Below, one piece after another: positions 4,801 to 46,600 of a DNA stretch of 64,000 bases (position 1 is its first letter; each line of letters opens with the position of its first letter). The position numbers and the translations under genes are program-made. The notes beneath the pieces were generated by a model. That model was given only the letters and a program-made list of their open reading frames with translations, had not been told where the DNA came from and made no database searches. This DNA is from Cladopsammia gracilis (Eukaryota; Cnidaria; Anthozoa; Scleractinia; Dendrophylliidae). The stretch lies in NCBI GenBank assembly GCA_022457155.1, contig JAJGOT010000047.1:1618501-1682500 (forward strand). The letters are read 5' to 3'.

Positions 4801-7008
4801 CTACTGCATCTTGAGTGATCTCTGACCATAACTGCGCGCGCATTTCTTTGATCATTACATAAAACATTTTAACAGCATCGAATTCTAAAAAAGAGTCGTC
4901 AGGACGGAGTCCGTTAACTATCGACGGCTTCAGAAACACCCGCTCTCTTCAGTTACGATAACTTTTTTTGTACAGTATGACTCATCGACTCAGCGAAAAT
5001 TGCACCCGCGAAAATTTAGCTGCTTTTTTGGTGATTCGCCGCAAATTCTAAACCCCGCGAAAATAAAATCTAAAGAAGGCCATTCCGAAATGGATGCTAC
5101 TGAGAAGTCATTTCCTGTAGTGCTGTTTGCTCTTTGATATTGTACAAAGATGTGCTTGTGCTTGAGTATAACACTATCGGGCCATTCTTGTTCCCAGACC
5201 TCCACGGGCTTTTCAACCACTGACTAAAAGAAATGAGGGCTCTGAGGACCAAACGAGGGGGAGGGGGAGAGGGGCACTTCGTGCATATCGACGTCCCGTA
5301 ATTGGTGATATATTTTCACTGGGATTCCCGTGCTATGAAAATATATGAAAGAATCAGCCCGAGGCGATTGGGAGCGGGTAGCTCCCAAGGGAGAAGAATG
5401 GTCCATCGCTGCCGGGAGGAGGGTGGGCGAAGCTATGTGACGGTCGTCCCTTTCGAAAAGACTGAGGGAGGTTTTTGCGTGAGGCGAGCACCTTTATACT
5501 AAACACAAAGTATATGGCTACGTAATACGCCCCCCCCCCCCCCCCTGCACCACATACTGCACGGCGCATATATCTAATTAGGAATAGAGGAGGGACATCG
5601 TGTGCAAGTTCCCCAGAGAAAATAGAATCTTTTCCCACTCCTCGACATCGTAAGTCTGTTAATGTCTACCTTCACAAAAAGTCTGGGTTTCTAAAAAGTA
5701 CATGTTAGCCAAGTCCGTAATCAATAACTTGGAAACCTAATGTAATGGAACACCGGGGCCGCTGCGCTTTGGACTGAGTTAACCCTTTCAGTACACCAGC
5801 AAACAGAAAAACGAAGGCGCACAGAGTCATTCCGAGCACTAAAGAAAAAACATTGAAAGAAACACTACTAAGAGATGGATATTAGCGAAGCAACTCCGAA
5901 ATACCCCGTCCAGGGAAAGAGCAATGAAGGATATTAGACAATCCCTTCGAGGAAGCTTCGCAAAAAGGTTACCCACGGAAACAGACAGAATACAAACTAT
6001 CCGACGGACACTAAAAGATTATACAAAGCTAGAAAACAGACTAGAATTGATGTCCACTAAGATCGGGCTTAGAAGTGCTTTGCTTAAGACTGGGATAAAT
6101 TTAGCGCGAAAACCTCGCTTAAGGACGTTCGCGCTAATTGTTTATGCGCATCCCAGTACTGCGCACGCAATTCATGTCGCAACGCCATGCTACGTCATGC
6201 ACGAGCATGCGCAAGAGAAGAAACCTAAGCACATAAAGAGCTGGTAGCCGTTGCGTTAACATTGCTTAGATTTAACTCGCTTGGATGGTCGGTGACCCTA
6301 ATTTTTTTTTCTAGATAATTTTCTTTTCCAATCTTCTACAGATTGTCAAAAAATTAACAAAAAAAAATCAATGTAGGAAGTTTAATTTTTTTCCATTTTT
6401 CTACCCGCATGACATCAAATCCTTCCAACTTGCGGCTGTCCGAGTCTGATATGTTGTCGTTTAAAGATTCGATTCCCTTTAAGGGACCTTAAAATTTGGC
6501 ATAAAAAGTTGCATTTTAGAGATACATTTGCAATATTTTTAGACTAACAGACATTGGGGCCATAGTCCAGTATTAGGAAGACCAAATTTTCAAAATTAGA
6601 GTCACCTTTCAAATATTTTATCTCGAAAACGAAGTCAATGAGCCCCCCATTTTTTTGCATTTTTGACACCAGTAACTCATTACCTAGCTGTTGCAAAAGT
6701 TTTATAAAAAATCAATATTAGACGATTTTCGCGCGAACGTCAACAACGTTTCCCGTTCCACTTTCAGAAATCGTGTTACTTTTGTTTAAGTATGCCTGCG
6801 GAGTTAACCATCTTTGACACAAAAAGAGATGTGATAATACATAGTAACATCATAGTACTTTAAGTCATTCTAGGTTTTTCAAACCATTACTGTTCTCAAC
6901 AGAAAATGGACAGTTTTGAATTTATTTTGATGTTTAAGAGAAAAAAATGTTATTACTATTGGTTAGTCAGGAGATCAGAAGCAGTGCTACATCATCAAAC
7001 AAGCACTA

Positions 7009-7079
7009 GCACTGGTGGTTCAGTGGTAGAATTCTCGCCTGCCACGCGGGAGGCCCGGGTTCGATTCCCGGCCAGTGCA
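7009..7079 (+). tRNA. tRNA-Gly (anticodon GCC)
   Basis: The 71-base sequence starts GCACTGGTGGTTCAGTGG and ends GGTTCGATTCCCGGCCAGTGC plus the discriminator A. The acceptor arms pair (GCACTGG with CCAGTGC), the D arm has the GGTTCAGTGG box A, the anticodon loop is CTGCCAC (anticodon GCC), and the T arm has box B GGTTCGATTCC. There is no intron. An identical copy lies at 17702-17772 within the same duplicated segment. A short T run follows as a possible pol III terminator. Confidence 0.96.
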
Positions 7080-7410
7080 ATTCTTTTGTTCTAGTTTTGT
7101 GGAGTCGGCTCAATTTTTATGATTTTTAAGTAATGGTCCTAGTAAAACCTAGGCAACCTAACGGCAAGGAATGCAAAAAGGTGTTAATTGTGATATTGTT
7201 GAAACCGTCCCCCTCATTGGCTAAAACGTAAAAATCTACCATAACTTATCCAGTTAGTGCATTTATTTCTCTCTAGTTTACTTATTGATTCCCTTTTGGT
7301 GAAAACTATTGCGAGTTTTAATGCAACCGAAATCTCAGTCTATGTGGGAAATATGTAAAATTAAAAGCCTTTCTTGTTTTTTTTTCTACTTGTAATTCAT
7401 TGTTTGTGGC

Positions 7411-10730: not shown

Positions 10731-11631
10731 CTTGTTTCTTTGATATTTTTATTTACAAGGTCCCAATCCCCCGCGCGGCCAAAAAAAAAGTTGGCCGAAT
10801 TTGAGGCCAAAATTTCCAAGCGTGTTTTGTTCCCAAGATCACGAAATAGTATAGCATTGTAAATGCGCGGATGGAAAACCAAGGCCCAATTTTTAATCCA
10901 CAGGATGATTATATTGCCGGTCCATACGCTATTGCTTTTTTTTTTTTTTCATGCATGGGGAGCCATTTAAGTATTTTCACTCGCAGTGACGAGCAGGCGA
11001 GTGATGTACACTTTGTACTGGCCCAAAAGGAGTCGAGGGTCTCAATGCAATGGGGTTAACCGTTAGCCGTAAAACGACCCAAAATTTAGTCGTTAGACGT
11101 AAAAACCTGAAAAGTTTAAACCGTTAGGCGTAAAAACATTTCTAGCCACGATTTGTCATTTGCCAGCTCTTGTTAAGACTGTTATGTGAAACACTGGCTA
11201 GAATCAATCTGGAACGTCCAAAAAGAATCTGGAATGAAGTGATAAGTCTAAAATAAACCAATCACTGACCACCTACTCATTGAGTCATCTTCCAATACTA
11301 AATAAGTATAAATTAACGAATAAGCTAGCAGTATTTTGACAGGTCATCATAGATAAACTCATTGAGTACAAAACAAAAGTCTTTGACTAAAAAATCGACT
11401 TATTCAGTACGAACGTGAACTGAAAAAGTATGTATCGACGAATCAAAAGCTGCATATAAGATTATCCAATTTTCGTTCCTATTACGTTCATCGATCCATT
11501 CGTACACGTTTTGGCGCCTTATTATTCTGACTTAGCTCCAAAAAGATAATTAATTACAATATTCACGGTACACTTAAAATTATTCAGAAAAACTGTGCAC
11601 TGTATTAAATTCTTCAGAAAAAAAGGCAGTT

Positions 11632-11826
11632 TTGTATTCAAATATGCGTTTTCCCCGCACTAGCAAAGCCAAACGGTTACAAACAAACGCAGTTAGATCG
11701 TTGACGCGTATTTTCAAACACCGCTCTGGTACTGCGAAGTGTATCTATGTTTATGTTTCATGTGATGGTAAAATTAGCAACTCTACACTGTATATAGGTG
11801 GACAATCTGCTAATTTGCTAAAGTAA
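11632..11826 (+). pseudogene. Truncated copy of the antisense retroelement ORF (left arm)
   Basis: This is the left-arm counterpart of the 126-codon frame at 16412-16792. It is nearly identical, but a single base change turns GGA into TAA and stops it after 64 residues. The matching sequence continues beyond the stop. It reads inward, opposite to the reverse transcriptase of the same arm. Confidence 0.6.
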
Positions 11827-12536
11827 CGCTTTACTGGCGAAAATGCAAATAACTGGTTGCTAAAACAATATTTTACGTACCTTGCAAGGACGCAAAGAGT
11901 GAATCATGCTCCTATGAAATTATCCGCTGGACCCGCTAGATCCCATAAAAAAATCCTTGTCAGGCGGTCCTGCTGCCTTAGTTTTAGGCCGCTCTCCCGT
12001 TTTTGCTGTAGAAGCCATCCATGAAAACAATGATTCGACGGTTAAGACGTGTTCAAGGATGCAGATGAAACGGGCCGAGACAAGGCAATATTATCAGAGA
12101 ATAAGTCAGGGCTGCCGGTAAACCGGTCCCACGCGCGAAAGAAACAAAATCGGAACTAATTTGATACACTCTGATTGTCATCGTCAGAAGAAAAGCAAAT
12201 GTTCACTTTTGCAACATTCGTATTCCCTGAAGATTAGATGATCACAGATAGTATACGGTTCTTTTCCACTTTTTTGGTAAAAGGTTGGTCAAGACAACAA
12301 AGGAATGTGTAAACATATTCATGTTAAACACATTCATCCATTCACCTCGTGATAACTCGTGTCACGCTTTTATTTGCTTTTTACAATACTTTCTTGTGTT
12401 CAAAATAGCACTATCAGATATCGGAACAATTTATACTTTTTAAGCTGACTAGCTTTCAATTCAAACCGATCTAAGGGCCAAGGTACTTTAATAATGAGTC
12501 CATTTTGTATTTTGGCGTTCAAGACAAACCGAACTG

Positions 12537-12626
12537 TCTCAACGGGGCCAAGGTCTCGTGAAAGGTAGAATTCTGTACTTTTAAGTACAGAATTCTACCT
12601 TTCACGAGACCTTGGCCCCGTTGAGA
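12537..12626. repeat. Perfect 90-bp hairpin in the left arm of the Penelope-like element
   Basis: 44-bp arms (TCTCAACGGGGCCAAGG... and its complement) are separated by two bases. The corresponding place in the right arm (about 15896-15945) has only one of the two arms, so a local snap-back duplication happened in the left copy after the two arms formed. Confidence 0.9.
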
Positions 12627-12718
12627 AGTTAAAATGAGTTCAATTTATACGGAATAGATAGTAAATGGCATGCCTACACTGACTCCCTTTGTGGGGTTAT
12701 TGCGTCGCATTGGATCCT

Positions 12719-13791
12719 TCAGATTTTTGCTCGCACGAGCGTGTCTTTGAGGGATTTGCCTCTTTTGTATGATATTATCGGAGGTTTCTTGTAAATAGTT
12801 TTTAGCGGTGGCTGATTTTCTATTAAACTCCAGTTATCCATCACTATTTGTTTGAGATTTTGCACTGCTGGGTGGTACCTAGTGACAAAAGGCAATATCT
12901 TATCATGAGTCTTTTTCTTTTGTTCGAGTGCCGACCGTCTAAAGGCGAAAATGACTCCTGATAGTGACCTCTCTATGACTGTTTTTGGATACCCACGCGC
13001 TATAAGGCGTAGTTTGAAGTTAGAGAGGCACTCTTCAAATGTTATTTTTGAAGGGTTCGTTCTCAGTAGTCTAATTGCTTCGCCTTTGATAAAACCTCTT
13101 TTTACGCCTGGCGGATGGCAAGAGGTAAAGTGTGTATATTGAAAGGTTTCAGTCGGTTTGTAGTGCGTATTGATGTCCAGGATGGATTCGCTTTTAAACC
13201 TTTCCCCTTTGAATACAACTGTATCAAGGAAAATTATTTTGTTCTCTGATACCTCGGCTGTAAATTTAATGGTAGGGTGGAGTCTATTAGCTTGATCAAT
13301 AAATAGATTGACTTCTTGTATATTGCTGTCCCAAAGGGAGAAAATGTCGTCAATGTAGCGTTTCCATACTCTTGGCTTCGTTATATTGCTTTGTTGAATT
13401 ATTCTTGTTTCAATTTCCGCCATGAAAATATTTGCAAATGACACTGCCATTTTTGTTCCCACAGCGGTTCCATGAGTTCGGAGATAATTTTCGCCATAGA
13501 ACTGGAACGAATTCTACTGTAGGATTAAAACAAGCATTTCGTTTAGGAAACGTGTAGGTATCGGAGGGCTGTTATTGTGGAACTTTTCGTATGCTTTGCA
13601 CACTACTTCTATCCCTTCCTCCTGTGGAATGTTTGTATACAAGCGATAGTGAAATCCATCGAAACTAAAATAGCATCCTGGCCCATTTTATTTTTCTCTA
13701 TGAATTTGATGAAATCGGTTGTATCCTTAATATAGGATAGTTGTTTTTGAGCGATAGGTTGTAGTATTCGGCTAACAAAACTGTAAACCAA
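12719..13791 (-). pseudogene. Penelope-like reverse transcriptase, 5'-truncated and frameshifted (minus copy)
   Basis: The main open part (13462 to 12719, 247 codons) begins GTKMAVSFANIFMAEIE and contains the catalytic motif YIDDIF, then a palm and thumb region ending in LVRAKI. An upstream piece in another frame (13791-13609) contains QKQLSYIKDTTDFIKFIE, the finger region. The frames are separated by disruptions around 13470-13620. Sequence 5' to 13791 is missing. The motifs and their order are characteristic of Penelope-like elements, which use this enzyme for target-primed copying. No sense-strand GIY-YIG endonuclease follows the stop. Confidence 0.88.
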
Positions 13792-13799
13792 AGCAATGT

Positions 13800-15808
13800 A
13801 AATTTAGCCGAATTACAAAAACAATTTTCAGATCTTACAGATATTGTGTGTAAACATGTATTGCGGAATCCTGCAAAAGAAAATAAACCAGATGAAGTTT
13901 ATAACACTGTGTTCTCTGACCCTATAAAGAACGGCATAAATAGCCATATACACAAGAGCGATTTCTTATCTAAGAACACTGAAGACGCAATAAGCGTAGG
14001 AGAAACATGAAAAAAGGCGGGCAGCCACAGAAAGGGAGATAAATGTAAAATATCTTAAAAACCTCTCAAGCCATCGGCTAACTGACAGCCAGGTCAACAT
14101 ATTATCAAAGGGACTCAAATTCATCCCACCACCCGTGACAAACGGAACTAAAATAAGGCAAGGACTCTTGCGGGATTTTGAACAATTTGCGAGACGAATG
14201 CGCCTCCAATATATCTTTCACGGCCAAAATAAAGAAACTGAACCACATCCATTTCACGTCAACTCGAATTGGATTCTACCGGTTCAACCATCCGTTGCCT
14301 TTGAGAGCTATTTGGAAAGTATTAAAATACAACTCTCTGACGGATTAAAATAACAAAGCCAAAAAATAACTTGTCATGTAGCGAGGTAAAAGCCATCACT
14401 GAACTTAAAACAAACTCTGACATAAACCTTAAAAGGGCAGATAAAGGAACAACAACAGTCCTCATGAATAAAACGGACAAAATAAACGAGGCCCTATAGT
14501 GCAACTAAAAAATAGAGAGCACTACCAACCTCTCAAAATACCGATGGTTAGAGACACACAAGAGAAAGTTAACAAACTTATCTCTCTGCTACATCAGGGC
14601 AAGCACATAGACGACATGCAAATGACAAACAAATGGCTTTTACAAACTCCTGAACCGCCAAGATTACCAATACTCTATACGCTAACTAAAATCCACAAAC
14701 CTAAACCGGTCGGCTGACCCATCATCTCGGGCTGTGACGGCCCTAAGGAAAGAATATCTTCTTTTGTGGATAGTCTGCTGCAAAAACAACTATCCTATAT
14801 TAAGGATACAACCGATTTCATCAAATTCATAGAGAAAAATAAAATGGGCCAGGATGCTATTTTAGTTTCGATGGATGTCACTATCGCTTGTATACAAACA
14901 TTCCACAGGAGGAAGGGATAGAAGTAGTGTGCAAAGCATACGAAAAGTTCCACAATAACAACCCTCCGATACCTACACGTTTCCTAAACGAAATGCTTGT
15001 TTTAATCCTACAGTAGAATTCGTTCCAGTTCTATGGCGAAAATTATCTCCGAACTCATGGAACCGCTGTGGGAACAAAAATGGCAGTGTCATTTGCAAAT
15101 ATTTTCATGGCGGAAATTGAAACAAGAATAATTCAACAAAGCAATATAACGAAGCAGAGTATGGAAACGCTACATTGACGACATTTTCTCCCTTTGGGAC
15201 AGCAATATACAAGAAGTCAATCTATTTATTGATCAAGCTAATAGACTCCACCCTACCATTAAATTTACAGCCGAGGTATCAGAGAACAAAATAATTTTCC
15301 TTGATACAGTTGTATTCAAAGGGGAAAGGTTTAAAAGCGAATCCATCCTGGACATCAATACGCACTACAAACCGACTGAAACCTTTCAATATACACACTT
15401 TACCTCTTGCCATCCGCCAGGCGTAAAAAGAGGTTTTATCAAAGGCGAAGCAATTAGACTACTGAAAACGAACCCTTCAAAAATACATTTGAAGAGTGCC
15501 TCTCTAACTACAAACTACGCCTTATAGCGCGTGGGTATCCAAAAACAGTCATAGAGAGGTCACTATCAGGAGTCATTTTCGCCTTTAGACGGTCGGCACT
15601 CGAACAAAAGAAAAAGACTCATGATAAGATATTGCCTTTTGTCACTACGTACCACTCAGCAGTGCAAAATCTCAAACAAATAGTGATGGATAACTGGAGT
15701 TTAATAGAAAATCAGCCACTGCTAAAAACTATTTACAAGAAACCTCCGATAATATCATACAAAAGAGGCAAATCCCTCAAAGACACGCTCGTGCGAGCAA
15801 AAATCTGA
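13800..15808 (+). pseudogene. Penelope-like reverse transcriptase, longer but broken (plus copy)
   Basis: Successive plus-strand frames carry the N-terminal region (around 14105-14353, with IRQGLLRDFEQFARRM), a fragment with INLKRADKGTTT, another at 14499-14717 ending LTKIHKPKPVG, then the SGCDGP block, the finger region, the YIDDIF motif (about 15168-15190) and the end at 15806-15808. At least four frame breaks or stops separate them, including a stop replacing the residue after KPVG and a two-base deletion before the catalytic motif. It retains about 1 kb of 5' coding sequence that the minus copy lacks. Confidence 0.85.
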
Positions 15809-16411
15809 AGGCTCCAATGCGGCGCAATAACCCCACAAAGGGAGTCAGTGTAGGCATGCCATTTACTATCTATTCCGTATAAATTGAACTCATTAAGTAC
15901 AGAATTCTACCTTTCACGAGACCTTGGCGCCGTTGAGACAGTTCGGTTTGTCTTGAACGCCAAAATACAAAATGGACTCATTATTAAAGTACCTTGACCC
16001 TTAGATCGGTTTGAATTGAAAGCTAGTCAGCTTAAAAAGTATAAATTGTTCCGATATCTGATAGTGCTATTTTGAACACAAGAAAGTATTGTGAATGGAT
16101 GAATGTGTTTAACATGAATATGTTTACACATTCCTTTGTTGTATTTACCAACCTTTTACCAAAAAAGTGGAAAAGAACCGTATACTATCTGTGATCATCT
16201 AATCTTCAGGGAATACGAATGTTGCAAAAGTGAACATTTGCTTTTCTTCTGACAATGACAATCAGAGTGTATCAAATTAGTTCCGATTTTGTTTCTTACG
16301 CACGTGGGACCGGTTTACCGGCAGCCCTGACTTATTCTCTGATAATATTGCCTTGTCTCGGCCCGTTTCATCTGCATCTTTGAACACATCTTAACCGTCG
16401 AATCATTGTTT

Positions 16412-16792
16412 TCATGGATGGCTTCTACAGCAAAAACGGGAGAGCGGCCTAAAACTAAGGCAGCAGGACCGCCTGACAAGGATTTTTTTATGGGATCTAG
16501 CGGGTCCAGCGGATAATTTCATAGGAGCATGATTCACTCTTTGCGTCCTTGCAAGGTACGTAAAATATTGTTTTAGCAACCAGTTATTTGCATTTTCGCC
16601 AGTAAAGCGTTCCTTTAGCAAATTAGCAGATTTTCCACCTATATACAGTGTAGAGTTGCTAATTTTACCATCACATGAAACATAAACAAAGATACACTTC
16701 GCAGTACCAGAGCGGTGTTTGAAAATACGCGTCAACGATCTAACTGCGTTTGTTTGTAACCGTTTGGTTTTGCTAGTGCGGGGAAAACGCAT
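16412..16792 (-). CDS. 126-residue ORF antisense to the retroelement, possible GIY-YIG-like fold
   Basis: The frame runs inward from the right end, opposite in direction to the reverse transcriptase of its arm. It starts MRFPRTSKTKRLQ, is strongly basic, and contains KCIFVYVSCDGK then LYIGGKSANLLKERF. A VY followed about 12 residues later by YIG and then an arginine ten residues on is the spacing of GIY-YIG endonucleases, but the catalytic glutamate is not obvious, so this is only a suggestion. The left-arm copy has a premature stop. It may equally be a chance open frame in conserved non-coding sequence. Confidence 0.35.
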   Translation of the reverse strand: MRFPRTSKTKRLQTNAVRSLTRIFKHRSGTAKCIFVYVSCDGKISNSTLYIGGKSANLLKERFTGENANNWLLKQYFTYLARTQRVNHAPMKLSAGPARSHKKILVRRSCCLSFRPLSRFCCRSHP

Positions 16793-17230
16793 ATTTTAAT
16801 ACAAAACTGCCTTTTTTTCTGAAGAATTTAATACAGTGTACAGTTTTTCTGAAGAACTTTAAGTGTACCGTGATTATTGTAATTGATTATCTTTTTGGCG
16901 CTAAGTCAGAATAATAAGGCGCCAAAACGTGTACGAATGGATCGATGAACGTAATAGGAACGAAAATTGGATAATCTTATATGCAGCTTTTGATTCGTTG
17001 AAACAGACTTTTTCAGTTCACGTTCGTACTGAATAAGTCGATTTTGTTTTGTACTCAATGAGTTTATCTATGATGACCTGTCAAAATACTGCTAGCTTAT
17101 TCGTTAATTTATACTTATTTAGTATTGGAAGATGACTCAATGAGTAGGTGGTCAGTGATTGGTTTATTTTAGACTTATCACTTCATTCCAGATTCTTTTT
17201 GGACGTTCCAGATTGATTCTAGCCAGTGTT

Positions 17231-18210
17231 CTAACAGACACTGGGGCCATAGTCCAGTATTAGGAAGACCAAAGTTTCAAAATTAGAGTCACCTTTCAAA
17301 TATTTTATCTCGGAAACGAAGTCAATGAGCCCCCCATTTTTTTGTATTTCTGACACCAGTAACTCATTACCTAGCTGTTGCAGAAGTTTTATAAAAAAAT
17401 CAGTATTAGAAGATTTTCGCGCGAACGTTAACAACGTTTCTTAGTCCAATTTCAGAAATCGTGTTACTTTAGTTCAAGTATGCCTGCGGAGTTAACCATC
17501 TTTGACACAAAAAGAGATATGATAATACATAGTACATATATAGTACTTTAAGTCATTCTAGGTTTTTCAAACCATTATTGTTCTCAACAGAAAATGGACA
17601 GTTTTGAATTTATTTTGATTTTTAAGAGAAAAAAATTGTTGTTACTATTGGTTAGTCAGGAGATCAGGAGCAGTGCTACATCAAAGCCGAAACAAGCAAT
17701 AGCACTGGTGGTTCAGTGGTAGAATTCTCGCCTGCCACGCGGGAGGCCCGGGTTCGATTCCCGGCCAGTGCAATTTTTTTATTGTAGTTTTGTGAGTCGG
17801 CTCAATTTTCATGATCAAATGAAAGATCAGTCAAAACTTGATATATTTTTGTTCCCAAGATCACGAAATAGTATAGCATTGTAAATGCGCGGATGGAAAA
17901 CCAAGGCCCAATTTTTAATCCACAGGATGATTATATTGCCGGTCCATACGCTATTGCTTTTTTTTTTTTTCATGCATGGGGAGCCATTTAAGTATTTTCA
18001 CTCGCAGTGACGAGCAGGCGAGTGATGTACACTTTGTACTGGCCCAAAAGGAGTCGAGGGTCTCAATGCAATGGGGTTAACCGTTAGCCGTAAAACGACC
18101 CAAAATTTAGTCGTTAGACGTAAAAACCTGAAAAGTTTAAACCGTTAGTCGTAAAAAAATTTCTAGCCACGATTTGTCATTTGCCAGCTCTTGTTAAGAC
18201 TGTTATGTGA
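17231..18210. repeat. Right copy of the tRNA-Gly-bearing duplicated segment (uninterrupted)
   Basis: Starts directly after the right end of the Penelope-like element and matches 6544-7120, 7669-7700 and 10825-11189 in order with few differences. It lacks the 3.1 kb transposon and the 548-bp stretch found in the left copy. It carries the second tRNA-Gly gene. Confidence 0.88.
17702..17772 (+). tRNA. tRNA-Gly (anticodon GCC), second identical copy
   Basis: Identical over all 71 bases to the gene at 7009-7079: paired acceptor arms GCACTGG/CCAGTGC, box A, anticodon loop CTGCCAC and box B GGTTCGATTCC. A seven-T run follows closely and would terminate RNA polymerase III. The surrounding segment is duplicated too, so this copy arose with it. 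Confidence 0.96.
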
Positions 18211-40600: not shown

Positions 40601-43600
40601 GAATTAAATAAATAAAAATAAATAAAAAATTATCGAGCCATGTTTACATTGCGTTACGCGTTGTGTAGATAAATTTGGTAATCTTATCGAAAGTGTTGAT
40701 TGATACAACAAAGCCTTCACGAATTTGACTAAGCAGATGTTTTAATTCAAAATTTCTATTTGACTATATTTCGACACCTTTTCACAAGGAAGAGTCGCTC
40801 AAATATGAGCCAGCGATGTGTAGAGCATTTCTTATCCTAGGTACTTGGTGTATCCCCAATCATAATGTATGGTACTTCATGTATCCCTTATTGTAATGTA
40901 TTTAGATATTTGGCAGTGTAATGTCGGGTCGGATTACAGTATCTAGGGTTGAAGCCTTGATTTAAGTATTTAGGGTTAAGCACTGATTCCAGTATTTCCA
41001 GTGTATCGAAAGGGTTAGTTCCTTTATATGGTCTGGGCTGGCAGCATATTATCTTATATCCCTTAAAAATTACAATTTCCGGCAGCTAGTCCTCGGTGGT
41101 ACAGTGGATAGTGTGCATGGAGTAGATCATACGGCCCGGGTTCGATTCCCCATTCTGCTGTTTTTATCTTCTTTTTCTACTGAAATAAAAACTAAGTGTT
41201 TAAATACAAAATAATAAGGGATACACCAAGTACATACCTTTCTTATTCACCAGTTGGCTCACAGGAGCCTTTGATTTAATATATATATTTTTTCTCTCTT
41301 TTTTCTTTTCATAAGAATGAAAGACGAAAGCGTGAAAACAAAACCGCCATGTCGTATCCTGCAGACTCCGATACCTTGGAACACCTTCATCCTCTGACAA
41401 CAAGAGTTCAAGTACTCATAAAAACTATCCACTCTGTAAGGACTCAAAAGAAAATCGAAGAGATTACCTTTAGAACTCCTAAAGAACCCGAGCCTCCAAC
41501 ACTATTTCGCCTCATCGCGAGCAAAAACTCGTTCAAAGAGATTCTCGATGAGAAGCTTAAGGACGAAACATTCCGCACAGAAATGACGTGGAAACGACGT
41601 CTGCAAAGGATGATGTGTGACGTCCTCGGTCACCCTTCTGTTGAGATGTGCATTATGGGATTCATTCTCGCAAATACAGTGGTTCTGGCTCTGCATCACC
41701 ATGAAATTGACACGAAGTTTAAGAAAGTCCTCGATGCTCTTAATCTTGTAAGTATGTTTTGACCAGATATAATTATAAGTCGTATTGACAACAAGTTTTA
41801 TTCTATGGTTGAAATGGTCGACAAAAAATAGAAAAAGAAAAGGAGCATTCTGATCAGCTCCCTAAGGGGTCCGCTAACGAAAGTTGATATCTAATAAAGC
41901 GATGGGAAACTTGACGATACGTTTGAAACTGAACATAATCTGGATACTTATGTCTTTGACCAGGCCAGGGTCTTGTCTTCAGATGATTTTAGGGTCTATG
42001 AGGAGTTTTTTTATCTTTGATACAAATTCGCAGGCCAATTCCGATTCCTTTCAAACCTAATTATACAGGTTAGCGATGAGAGAGAATCTCGCGCTGTTTT
42101 TCTCGGTGCCACTTCTGATCAATAATCAGTATTTAGATATTATCACGAGTGAAGGTCATCAAATCTAAACCATCTGCAATGGATCACACGACACATCTCT
42201 GCGGTTTGGCCAATACCTTACGCATGCGCACAGCCATATCAGCCCGGCAGTGGACATGTACAGTGTGGAGCTGGCGCTTTGCTGTGCATGCACACGCCTC
42301 GGCAGTAAAGGGAATCTGAAAACGGCTTTCAGGTCCTATAGGGGTCTGATGTCTATGCCATGCTGATGAGTCCTAACAAGGACGAAACAGTTGTCCATGG
42401 CTGCCACTTCCGGGGTGATATGGCTGTGCGCATGCGTAAGGTATTGGCCATACCGCCGAGATGTGTCGTGTGACCCATTGCTTTCAGATCGTTTATTTAT
42501 CAAATCTGTTTCATAAGAGGTGCTAACGCTAATTACTATCAGTTTACCTTTCCACTCGCCATTTTAGCCGTGCTTTCTCAGTGTTGAGCTTTCACTGAAA
42601 TTGCTCCTTTACGTTCCAACATTGGATGGAAGGGGGGAGGGAGAATGTCCATGTCTGTTTTTTTTAATAGTTCTGGAATGGTTTCAGCTATGCCTTCTCA
42701 ACTACTTCTGACTGTGACTGTAGCTTTTTCCTGAATATTTTCCAGATGTTTACCGTCATATTTACTGTGGAGATGACAGTGAAACTTGTTGCCCTTGGTC
42801 CGAAGTATTACATCCAAGGCAGATGGAACATATTTGACGGTATCATTGTTATCGTCAGCTTAGTGGACACGGGGCTTGAGTTAGCGGACTTCAAAGAATC
42901 CTCTGGGACAAGTGTCTTCAGAACATTTCGCTTGGTAATAAATACGTAAATTTCTTGAACTGTTGCAGTGCGAATCGGAAAAGAGAAACACTTCGTGCTA
43001 TGCTGAGCATAATTGACAAACTAATATAATTACAGAATTTACTGGGACTCTGAGGAATGCCACACCTACAGTGAAACGACTACCAATTATTAATTCTAGA
43101 AAGCTGGTTTGCTAAGAGCAAGCACCACTAAACCTATGCCACCGCAACAGCCACCTGCATCTCACAAACAACGTATCTAGCTACTTATATTTATATATTT
43201 TGATCACTGCAATATTTCATTGCAAGTGACTGATTTTCCTTTGCGACACAATTCAATCTCCAGAAAAATTATAATGTTCACGCTTTTCTGATTCACACTG
43301 TGTAATCCCGTCTAATATTAATATACAACGAGAATTGACTATCAACGGTTTGGATTGCGAACTCTCATTCGTCATCCAATTTAATGAACTGTAATCCACT
43401 CCATCCTTGTGATACTAAACTTTGTCACCAAACTACTTGTTCTGCTCTTCCAACGAAGCTAATTAAGTGGCAAGTGATCACAAACAAAAATATAAATTGC
43501 CCATATTTTATCAAATTCCTCCAACTTTTAATTTACTTTAAGAAATGTATGCACACTAGTAAGAAGCATTTAAACTTGTATCTCACAGTTCAGAATCTTA

Positions 43601-46600
43601 AAGCTGGCTCAATCCTGGAAGACGATGCGCAAGCTGTTAGCAACAATCGCCAACAGCGTCGGACCAATCGGAAACATCACCCTCATCCTGGGTCTTGTGA
43701 TCTACATCTTTGCTCTAATGGGGATGAAAATGTTTGGCAAATACTACACGCCGGACAAGTTTGGTGACGATGGAGTGCCACGCTGGAATTTCAATGATTT
43801 TTGGCACGCGTTCATGATGGTGTTCAGAGTGTTGTGCGGGGAGTGGATCGAGCCTGTCTGGGATTGCATAAGGGCGACAGACAGTCCCGCAGCTGCGATT
43901 TCTTTCTTCATTCCAGCGGTTATCATAGGGAATTTTGTTGTAAGTTATTAAAATATAGAGTAGAATTTCGACAACTCGAACCGTCACGGGGAAACGCAAA
44001 ACCAAAACCAAAACCAAATTAGAGCACTTTTCAATTGAGTGTCGATTGCATTTGCATTGCTAAGCTTTGTGATTGGCTAAAAAATCTCGCGCCATTTTCT
44101 CAACCAATCAGAAGTAAAACCAAAACCAATCGTGACTTGCTTGCACGCGTTTACCCGCGCTTGGCGCCGGCCACATGTATTTGCTTCGAGTTCTGATTGG
44201 TTCATCGGATTGTCTGTGAGTTCTGTGATTGGTCAGAGTAATAACTTTGGTTTTGGTTTTACGACACTCGATTGAAAACCGCTCTAATCACTCGGGCCAA
44301 TCACAACAGACACAATAAACCAATTAGACCTCGATGCAAAGAGGCAAATACAGATAGCCGCCGCCAAAGCGCGGGAAAGCCAAAAGCGCGTGCGAGTAAG
44401 TCATGATTGGTTGATAAGGACGCGGGGTGTTTTTCCCAATCACAACGCCTAGCAATGCAAAACCAAAGCAATTACAAAATTACTTTCGACACTCAATTGA
44501 ACACCGCTCTATCGAGAGTTCGAGTTATCGATGGTTAAGTTCTGCAGTGATAAAGTGAGTAAGGGAAAACTCTATATCGAGTTACAGGGAGTTTGAATTA
44601 CAGAGATTCTACTGCTAAAGACTAGTTACGTTTCATTTGTTAATTATGTCGAGCACAGACATTTTACCGTTAGAATAATGTTATTGACTATCGAAAGTAA
44701 TTTAGGTTCGCTCTAGAGCTAACGAAGGCCTAACGCTCGAAACTTCAGCTTGAACCTCTTTCAGTGGCCAATTTATCGACTCAGGTGATAAATTTAAACC
44801 AAATTTTCGTGTTTCACTCTCCATCAACGCAGCACCACAGTTTATTTAGAAACTAATTCCTTTATTCACTAAACGATTTGTAGGAACTTGTAAAATAATT
44901 TCTTTGGCTCCCCAATTGCAGTTTTTTAAGGTAGCACTTCTACATTATCTCACATGTTAATGTAAACATTACAATCAATCCAGGATTACTCTAGCCTTTT
45001 CTCGTTGTCCTCCTGTCCAGAAAACAGTGCGTTGTATGTAGTTAACTTAATGCAGGAAATGTATTGTATTCAGCAAAACTGAAAATGTAATTTGAACAAT
45101 AGGGATATGTTAACATAAAAAAATTCCTTTATTCACTGGGTCACACTGTGTCACACCCAGGGTACTTACCAGATTGTTATGTCGACATCCACACTGTGCT
45201 TTAATAAAATTATCTCACAAGGGGGGGGGGGGGGGGGGGGGGGACGGGGACGGAATAGGAGACGTCTGCGTCTGCGCACAGGCTAGTAATTTAGCGATTG
45301 CCTTGGTTTGCTTGATGATTGGCTACAAAATCTCACGCCGCTTTCTTAACCAATCAGAAGTAAAACCAAAACCAATCGTGACTTGCTCGCACGCGTTATC
45401 CCGCGCTTGGCGTCGTTTTCATTGTAGGTTTAGCATCTCCAACTTACATGGGCAACATTGCTGTAATTCTCTGCTGCTAGGGTATATGATCTCAATTCTG
45501 TACTTATCAGACTATGCCTCAAAAATTCGAAATCTATGCTTTCTGTTTATTTCATAGGTGCTTAATCTATTTCTCGCTCTTCTTTTGAACGCGTTCGATA
45601 ACGGCGATGATGACGAAGGAGAAGAAGAAGACGAGAACGACAGTGACAAGGAAGAACCCAAGTTTAAGCAACTTCTTGCCAAGCTAACACAAACGAAGAA
45701 AACTGAAGTGTTTCCGGTGACTAATTCGCCATTACGTCAGGAAATGTGCTCTTCTTGGCAGGAAATGCAAACGGTTTTAAAGGAAAGCGAAGGCAGGAAC
45801 TCGGGAAGGTTTGCTGCTATGACAGTAGGTGCGTACGTATAAAGAAATTTTTCTCCGTGTTTAAGGATTTTTGGTATACGGGTTTCCTAAATATGAATTT
45901 TGAAAAACTAAATGAAGTATTAACAAGCCTAGGGGCCCACAACTGTCAGATTAACCTTGTCTCTGTAGCAAGAAGCGACTATAAAAAGTACTGTGTTCAC
46001 ACTAGGGCGAAACATGTTCAGTCTGATTACGAATGAAACATGTTTCACTAGGAAATTTGTTTACATCAGGCATCACTGATGCCTGATGTAAACAAATTTC
46101 CTAGTGAAAATTGGGCGAATCATGATCGAAGGTCTTGAGAAGTGAAATACAACGACAATTCATACAACAGAACAGCGAGTGTGGCCATTCAAATGCGAGT
46201 GAAAGCTATAGCTATTGAGCAGTACTTCCCTGTGGTGCTGTTTATTGTATTGCTGAAAGTAGTTCTAACTTTTGAGTCTATGGATGATATAGTGCAATGT
46301 GACCGGGCAGTACTCTTCTGTATGCTGGTGTATAATGTGATTCACGGTGATTTGAACTTTAAAGTTTGCAAAAGGAATCTTAATTGTGACCATTTATATG
46401 AAAGTTACTTGTTGTACAATGTAGCTATGACTTTTAAGGAACCTAAATTGTAATCATTGAAATAGAAGCAGCTACTGGGCATGAGAATTGAACAACGAAC
46501 TTTTAATTTCGTTTTTGGGCTCTCTTTAATTTTTTTTAAAGGCCCTTTGTATCTTGTTTTTATTTCAGTTAACAGTACGCCTGGGCAATCGAGCCCATGT

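What the first reader, a model, noticed from the sequence alone, without database searches (positions are those of the whole stretch)
42176..42481. Complete type I hammerhead ribozyme inside a 306-bp inverted-repeat element in a channel intron
Seen directly: stem I GCCATG/CATGGC, CTGATGA, stem II GTCC-TAACAA-GGAC, GAAA, a minimal stem III and GTC before the cleavage point (42357-42401). Hammerheads with such short stem III are known from Penelope-like elements and animal retrozymes, where they sit in direct terminal repeats. Here the ribozyme lies inside 78-bp terminal inverted repeats, a different architecture. In sense orientation within intron 10 it could cut the channel pre-mRNA or process a small RNA.
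Basis: partly seen in the sequence, partly recalled or inferred. Interest (0 to 1): 0.88.

Follow-up and report, generated by a model that had tools for sequence, protein, structure and literature searches.

The report
Ribozyme jumping gene inserted head-to-head
A short non-coding repeat that carries a hammerhead ribozyme sits in an intron of a sodium-channel-like gene, and its mirror-image ends are joined at a different point in each of the 18 mirror-ended copies compared, so it was likely copied in from RNA by a Penelope-type jumping-gene enzyme working from both sides of a cut, and it is probably not a switch for the channel.

Summary
Window 42357-42401 matches Rfam Hammerhead_1 above the curators' cut-off, between inverted arms, in sense orientation in an intron of a sodium-channel-like gene. 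The insertion is larger than reported: 42167-42498, 332 bp, flanked by a 9-bp target duplication (ATCAAATCT). The inverted repeats are not fixed terminal repeats. In the same genome, copies of the family share a nearly fixed 3' end about 130 nt past an ATG inside the ribozyme, are variably 5'-truncated, and are sometimes partial dimers. In 18 of 49 non-redundant copies the 5' end carries an inverted piece of the 3' end; all 18 junctions differ. A target duplication (score 7 or more) flanks 11 of 18 such copies, 6 of 31 others and 4.1% of mismatched pairs. Published Penelope-like elements show the same traits: head-to-head inverted pseudo-LTRs, 8-10 bp duplications, and an enzyme that extends both strands from an internal start. 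I read the feature as a non-autonomous Penelope-type hammerhead element inserted head-to-head. Priming from both sides of the break is inferred; fold-back priming is not excluded, and no autonomous partner was found. Cleavage of channel RNA is untested and likely weak.

The parts
42158..42166 (+). 5' target-site duplication ATCAAATCT
   Evidence: exact 9-nt match to 42499-42507
42167..42253 (-). inverted copy of the element's 3' end (5' cap, truncated before the ribozyme)
   Evidence: matches reference-copy positions 225-320 in reverse; inner end placed by comparison with other copies
42254..42498 (+). 5'-truncated sense copy of the element (body)
   Evidence: matches reference-copy positions 76-326
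42357..42401 (+). type I hammerhead ribozyme, predicted cut after 42395
   Evidence: Rfam RF00163, 38.5 bits, E 3.5e-6
42366..42473 (+). short frame opening with the ATG inside the hammerhead core (MSPNKDETVVHGCHFRGDMAVRMRKVLAIPPRCVV*); resembles the Penelope layout in which the ORF starts in the hammerhead
   Evidence: translation; layout of the Anolis element in PMC11167929
42404..42498 (+). 3' arm, ending at the family's nearly fixed 3' end, +133 from the ATG in this copy
42499..42507 (+). 3' target-site duplication ATCAAATCT
42671..42949 (+). open stretch holding the next channel exon downstream of the element (exon start about 42746, by eye)
   Evidence: Pfam Ion_trans, E 3.3e-15
43574..43948 (+). 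open stretch holding a further channel exon; sodium-channel-like
   Evidence: Pfam Ion_trans E 3.2e-29; best solved-structure matches are sodium channels, E 9.1e-43

Best explanation
The feature is a 332-bp insertion of a short non-coding hammerhead-ribozyme retroelement, flanked by a 9-bp target duplication, that was likely put in place by a Penelope-type reverse transcriptase primed from both sides of a staggered break, so that two copies of the RNA's 3' end would meet head-to-head. Shown: a nearly fixed 3' end, variable 5' truncation, partial dimers, a different inner junction in each of 18 head-to-head copies, and a target duplication around 11 of those 18 pairs. Inferred: an enzyme made elsewhere in the genome by a Penelope-like element cuts both strands, starts copying at an internal site about 130 nt past the ribozyme's ATG on the RNA, and each of the two DNA ends is extended for a different distance. 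The two unfinished copies are then predicted to be joined by end joining, often with 0-4 nt of shared sequence. The ribozyme's work would be to process the element's own multi-unit RNA. In this intron it would be a passenger, at most a weak cutter of the channel pre-mRNA.
For: (1) Same 3' end: distance from the hammerhead ATG to the end of ..GGTTT has median 129 nt over 29 readable occurrences (range 121-143; only copies with an intact GATGAG[TC]CC were measured). (2) 5' ends differ: copies start at many positions of the reference copy. (3) 18 of 49 non-redundant copies carry an inverted piece of the 3' end at the 5' end; the 18 pairs of break points all differ (coordinates). (4) Target duplications: score 7 or more in 11 of 18 head-to-head copies, 6 of 31 others, 4.1% of 2352 mismatched pairs; Fisher 0.005. 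One duplication around the pair means one event. (5) Junctions with 0-4 shared nt in 7 of 10 examined. (6) In 9 of 11 readable cases (of 12 printed) the two outer ends stop at slightly different bases (judged by eye). (7) Precedent: the Anolis Penelope protein cuts and extends both strands and starts copying internally 111-118 nt into an ORF that begins in the hammerhead (PMC11167929, parts 1-2 of 4); Penelope copies in Adineta have head-to-head inverted pLTRs and 8-10 bp duplications, though some have none (PMC3846280, passages). (8) In the same genome a related hammerhead unit (92% over 112 nt) lies directly before a Penelope ORF remnant (L067); its homologue P0013 (50% identity over 73%) has GIY-YIG above and RVT_1 below Pfam's cut-off.
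Against: No intact autonomous Penelope element with this 3' end was found; protein searches of the genome did not complete (17 tries with the L067 protein, 2 with P0013). Arms within one element are slightly more alike (0.890) than arms of different elements (0.871), above all 5000 permutations, which also fits copying of one molecule on itself. The duplication result depends on the threshold: at score 6 head-to-head and other copies do not differ (11 of 18 and 14 of 31, Fisher 0.38, control 16.5%), and with 30-nt windows the score-7 contrast is weaker (12 of 18, 10 of 31, control 9.7%, Fisher 0.036). Seven of 18 head-to-head copies show no duplication at the main setting. In L012, L070, L083 and L084 the outermost bases of the inverted piece are missing or unreadable. 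Two of 10 junctions carry 8-10 unassigned nt and one (L010) was misplaced by the automatic count. No RNA data.
Confidence: 0.58

Rival explanations
1. Same element and enzyme, but the inverted 5' piece was made by fold-back (self-primed) synthesis on the element's own cDNA or on an antisense RNA, not by a second priming event at the target.
For: Self-priming is proposed for Penelope in PMC3846280 (passages). Arms of one element are slightly more alike than arms of different elements (0.890 against 0.871, 0 of 5000 permutations as high); at the two commonest variants 10 of 13 and 10 of 12 pairs agree (expected about 51% and 65%).
Against: Fold-back needs complementary priming at the turn, but 3 of 10 junctions have no shared base and two carry unassigned bases; it predicts identical outer ends, yet 9 of 11 readable pairs differ (by eye); 3 of 13 pairs disagree at the A/T variant.
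Confidence: 0.27
2. An animal retrozyme moved by a LINE-type enzyme, with the inverted ends arising by occasional twin priming.
For: A true dimer (L007, period 351-365 bp) and partial dimers, 5' truncation, one internally inverted copy (L077); PMC7229834 names LINEs as well as PLEs as candidates (passages).
Against: Twin priming inverts the 5' part of one RNA (recalled); here the inverted piece is a second copy of the 3' end in 18 of 49 copies. Minimal stem III and the ATG-in-hammerhead layout are Penelope traits. No poly(A) tail at the common end in the flanks printed.
Confidence: 0.1
3. A recruited host ribozyme that cuts the channel pre-mRNA and regulates the gene, or makes a small circular RNA there.
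For: Sense orientation, complete core in this copy, stems I and II kept in the predicted fold of the whole hairpin.
Against: One of many scattered copies; core intact in only 23 of 41 copies that span it. Single minimal hammerheads are described as needing a partner or protein (PMC7761336, PMC11167929). The isolated 73-nt piece does not fold better than shuffles (z 0.01), though that test does not score the hammerhead core. Conservation of this insertion in relatives was not tested.
Confidence: 0.04
4. A miniature DNA transposon (MITE or fold-back element) with terminal inverted repeats that captured a ribozyme.
For: Inverted ends and a short target duplication in the window copy.
Against: Junction between arm and body differs in 18 of 18; in 31 of 49 copies no inverted 3' piece was detected; duplication length varies from 7 to 12.
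Confidence: 0.01

Closest known systems
Penelope-like elements (Penelope/Poseidon type, EN-containing)
   Same: Type I minimal hammerhead with the ATG in its core, common 3' end downstream of the ribozyme, 5' truncation, tandem or partial tandem units, head-to-head inverted ends, short target duplications.
   Different: No reverse transcriptase or endonuclease gene; about 350-365 bp per unit in the one dimer measured; the head-to-head pair is the whole insertion.
Metazoan non-LTR retrozymes (Cervera and de la Pena 2020)
   Same: Short non-coding units with a type I hammerhead, size within 170-400 nt, presumed mobilised in trans.
   Different: The published text does not contain the word 'inverted'; G+C 0.52 here against under 45-50% stated; stem III minimal; mostly single or partial units here, not long tandem arrays.
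Adineta vaga Pen2a/Pen2 insertions with inverted pLTRs
   Same: Inverted pLTR joined head-to-head at the 5' end, 8-10 bp duplications, solo pLTR insertions.
   Different: Coding elements of several kb; self-priming was the authors' favoured reading.

Membership tests
Rfam Hammerhead_1 (RF00163) | covariance-model score at or above the gathering score | tested here: met
   38.5 against 34 bits
Metazoan retrozyme | tandem units of about 170-400 bp each with a type I hammerhead | tested here: inconclusive
   one dimer with two hammerheads (L007, 351-365 bp) and several partial dimers (L013, L014, L015, L017, L080, L094); most copies and the window copy are single
Metazoan retrozyme | G+C under 45-50% | tested here: not met
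   0.521 for 42167-42498, window 0.379
Metazoan retrozyme | abundant linear and circular RNAs | not testable with these tools
   no RNA data
Penelope-like element | ORF with RT and GIY-YIG endonuclease | tested here: not met
   tblastn of nine Penelope-type proteins hits the window only at 12.7-15.5 kb, not in the element; the frame from the hammerhead ATG is 35 codons
Penelope-like element (non-autonomous derivative) | head-to-head inverted ends within one target duplication | tested here: met
   18 of 49 copies head-to-head; duplication (score 7 or more) in 11 of 18
Penelope-like element (non-autonomous derivative) | common 3' end a short way past an ATG inside the hammerhead, as in the Anolis element | tested here: met
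   median 129 nt, 29 occurrences; Anolis 111-118 nt plus a 30-40 nt tail (PMC11167929)
Penelope-like element (non-autonomous derivative) | autonomous partner with matching 3' end in the genome | tested here: inconclusive
   related hammerhead unit beside a Penelope ORF remnant in L067-L069; genome-wide protein searches unanswered
MITE / TIR transposon | conserved terminal inverted repeats and fixed-length duplication | tested here: not met
   18 different junctions, duplications 7-12 nt

The most novel reading that the evidence does not exclude
Short hammerhead 'satellites' of Penelope elements insert by two-ended target-primed reverse transcription: both strands of a staggered break prime their own copy and the copies are joined in the middle. 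The inverted-arm copies in this genome would be a fossil record of that reaction, would name the machine that moves animal retrozymes, and would explain the long-noted inverted pseudo-LTRs.
Probability: 0.42. Interest if true: 0.78.

Novelty: new variant of a known kind. Interest (0 to 1): 0.56.

Why it matters
Which enzyme moves animal retrozymes is left open in the papers seen (PLEs are 'a strong candidate', PMC7229834; 'likely candidates', PMC7761336), and how Penelope elements come to have inverted ends was left unresolved (PMC3846280). A ribozyme-only family with the Penelope insertion signature ties the two questions together and gives many short, independent junctions on which to test one-ended, fold-back and two-ended models.

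Tried and rejected
Fixed terminal inverted repeats (MITE): rejected because the arm-body junction differs in 18 of 18 head-to-head copies. Nested separate insertions: unlikely where one duplication flanks the pair. Arm-to-arm identity as a test of one template against two: inconclusive, 0.890 within against 0.871 between. Arm length (L010, L012 have inverted arms longer than one unit): not decisive, because both arms share the 3' end by construction. L021 seemed to join a hammerhead unit to a GIY-YIG piece, but that piece lies in a neighbouring repeat with its own inverted ends. L049-L066 seemed to be full Penelope elements; the three whose ends were read (L067-L069) are a roughly 3-kb DNA-transposon-like repeat (ends GGCCCTGTTAGGG) that carries a captured Penelope/hammerhead piece. 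A motif scan of 97 homologues for the short N-terminal peptide found none; they were limited in length to 0.55-1.75 times the query, so full-length proteins were not among them. Host species was not identified; the only homologues of the Penelope piece with an organism name (3 of 97) are from the coral Oculina patagonica, which proves nothing about the host.

Copies: 61 loci were fetched for the family (L001-L036, L070-L094). One search used 49; dropped were six that share flanks with another locus (L005, L006, L011, L014, L087, L088) and six with a different or unreadable 3' end (L019, L021, L026, L027, L029, L035). One search was a first pass on 33 copies, including those last six and L014. 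One search used 10 head-to-head copies, L021 among them. One search used 18, without L021. One search used 55 loci, 41 of which span the ribozyme. Two window widths and five thresholds were tried; the report gives the main and the contrary ones. One search timed out and gave nothing.

Full report
What is there. The window holds one hammerhead ribozyme above Rfam's cut-off, at 42357-42401 on the + strand (38.5 bits, gathering score 34, E 3.5e-6). It lies between inverted arms of 78 nt, 94% complementary. The surrounding gene is of the voltage-gated sodium channel type, on the same strand. The core is complete: CTGATGA, a 4-bp stem II, GAAA, a minimal stem III (C-AGTT-G) and GTC before the predicted cut after 42395. 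In the predicted fold of 42165-42495 the arms form one long hairpin with ribozyme stems I and II kept near its tip (-204 kcal/mol against -111 for shuffles). That strong fold follows from the inverted arms and says nothing on its own about function.

The true boundaries. The insertion runs 42167-42498 (332 bp) between two exact copies of ATCAAATCT (42158-42166 and 42499-42507). The left 87 bp is an inverted copy of the element's 3' end that stops before the ribozyme; the right 245 bp is a sense copy whose own 5' part is missing.

The family. A search of the same 878-Mb genome found 1393 first-look candidates, of which 40 were scored; two further queries gave 1142 and 1297 candidates, 40 scored each. 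These are the best matches, so older copies are under-represented. I fetched 61 family loci and placed them on one real copy, from L003. They mostly share the 3' end: the distance from the ATG inside the hammerhead to the end of ..GGTTT has median 129 nt over 29 occurrences, range 121-143. Their 5' ends differ widely. L007 is a dimer with two hammerheads (period 351-365 bp, by where one measures); L013, L014, L015, L017, L080 and L094 are partial dimers. A second group has another 3' end (L021, L027, L029, L035). The hammerhead core is intact in 23 of 41 copies that span it; 17 of the 23 have the self-complementary stem III sequence CAGCTG, and the window copy has CAGTTG.

The inverted arms. 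In 18 of 49 non-redundant copies an inverted piece of the 3' end caps the 5' end. In the second sample, fetched with a query from the 3' end only (plus one locus), the count is 9 of 23. The 18 pairs of inner break points are all different. In four caps (L012, L070, L083, L084) the outermost bases are missing or unreadable. At ten junctions examined base by base (L021 among them) the overlap is 0, 2, 0, 4, 2, 1 and 0 nt in seven; two carry 10 and 8 unassigned nt; one (L010) is about -1 nt from the alignment but was misplaced by the automatic count. So the inverted repeat is made afresh at each insertion.

Target duplications. With windows of 18 nt outside and 8 nt inside each boundary, and a score of matches minus twice the mismatches (at most one mismatch), a score of 7 or more is reached by 11 of 18 head-to-head copies, 6 of 31 other copies, and 4.1% of 2352 mismatched flank pairs (Fisher 0.005 between the two kinds of copy). 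At score 6 the two kinds do not differ (11 of 18, 14 of 31; control 16.5%); at 8, 9 and 10 they do (Fisher 0.019, 0.020, 0.014). With 30-nt windows the score-7 figures are 12 of 18, 10 of 31 and 9.7% (Fisher 0.036). The window copy has 9 of 9. One duplication around the pair means that both arms entered in one event. That head-to-head copies have duplications more often than one-armed copies is what joining of two primed ends would give, with one-armed copies ending in a less orderly repair; this last step is inference.

One template or two. Arms within one element agree at 0.890 on average and arms of different elements at 0.871; no permutation of 5000 reached the observed mean. So the arms share ancestry a little more than chance, as expected for copies of one RNA or of one active variant, but also for fold-back synthesis. 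Against fold-back: three of ten junctions have no shared base, and in 9 of 11 readable cases the two outer ends stop at different bases, for example ..GGTTT against ..GTTTATTT in the window copy (read by eye, with some ambiguity where target and element share bases). I therefore favour two priming events, without excluding fold-back.

Link to Penelope elements. In the papers seen: the Anolis Penelope protein cuts and extends both strands, starts reverse transcription internally 111-118 nt into an ORF that begins at hammerhead stem II, and its hammerhead cut only when protein was present (PMC11167929, parts 1-2 of 4). That paper also found that ribozyme mutants did not lose insertion activity in vitro, so the ribozyme is not needed for the insertion step there. 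Adineta Penelope copies have head-to-head inverted pLTRs, several with 8-10 bp duplications and some with none, explained there by self-priming (PMC3846280, passages). A curation guide notes inverted pLTRs as a Penelope peculiarity (PMC8969392, passages). The window element has the ATG in the same place and its 3' end 133 nt on. In the same genome a DNA-transposon-like repeat of about 3 kb carries a head-to-head pair of related hammerheads next to a Penelope ORF remnant; the remnant itself has no Pfam match, but its homologue P0013 has GIY-YIG above and RVT_1 below Pfam's cut-off in one protein. An intact autonomous partner was not found; the protein searches of the genome that could have shown one did not complete.

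What is new. The papers seen state that Penelope elements are candidates to move retrozymes, not that they do (PMC7229834 parts 1-3 of 6 and passages; PMC7761336 passages; PMC8969392 passages). In my searches of the held library (listings only and several of them capped) I saw no report of a ribozyme-only family with head-to-head insertions; the library lacks many papers, including three I looked for, so this is not proof of absence. The kind is known, the combination looks like a new variant.

Function in the channel gene. There is no evidence for it here. The copy is one of many, single minimal hammerheads are described as needing a partner or protein, and nothing here tests cleavage or conservation of this insertion.

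Noticed in passing
window 11190-17230: A 6-kb palindromic repeat: arms of about 2.5 kb, 97-100% complementary, with broken Penelope-like reverse transcriptase frames (KRYIDDIF motif) on both arms and a 1-kb unique centre; itself a head-to-head arrangement, probably recent; no hammerhead at E up to 5.
   Followed up: partly
window 6544-7101 and 17231-17794; 10825-11189 and 17847-18210: Direct repeats of unequal identity (93-96% and 99-100%) on both sides of that palindrome, one pair with identical tRNA genes at 7009-7079 and 17702-17772; a duplicated target region or an assembly duplication.
   Followed up: no
L049-L069 (e.g. L067:461-3474): Repeat of about 3 kb with ends GGCCCTGTTAGGG/CCCTAACAGGGCC (read in three copies) that has captured a head-to-head hammerhead pair and a Penelope C-terminal ORF remnant and spreads them.
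   Followed up: partly
L009 (C1309:1-9500): A hammerhead copy repeated in a long tandem array, most spacings about 1176 bp.
   Followed up: no
L037-L040, L045 (contig C71): Hammerhead hits of 52-56 bits at five places on contig C71 about 12-20 kb apart, in a different family; no ORF of 120 aa or more in the one locus listed, L040.
   Followed up: no
L077:379-620: A copy with an internal, not 3'-terminal, inverted segment, like twin priming of LINEs.
   Followed up: no
window 12536-12627: A 44-bp perfect hairpin with a 2-nt loop; only below-threshold microRNA-family matches.
   Followed up: no
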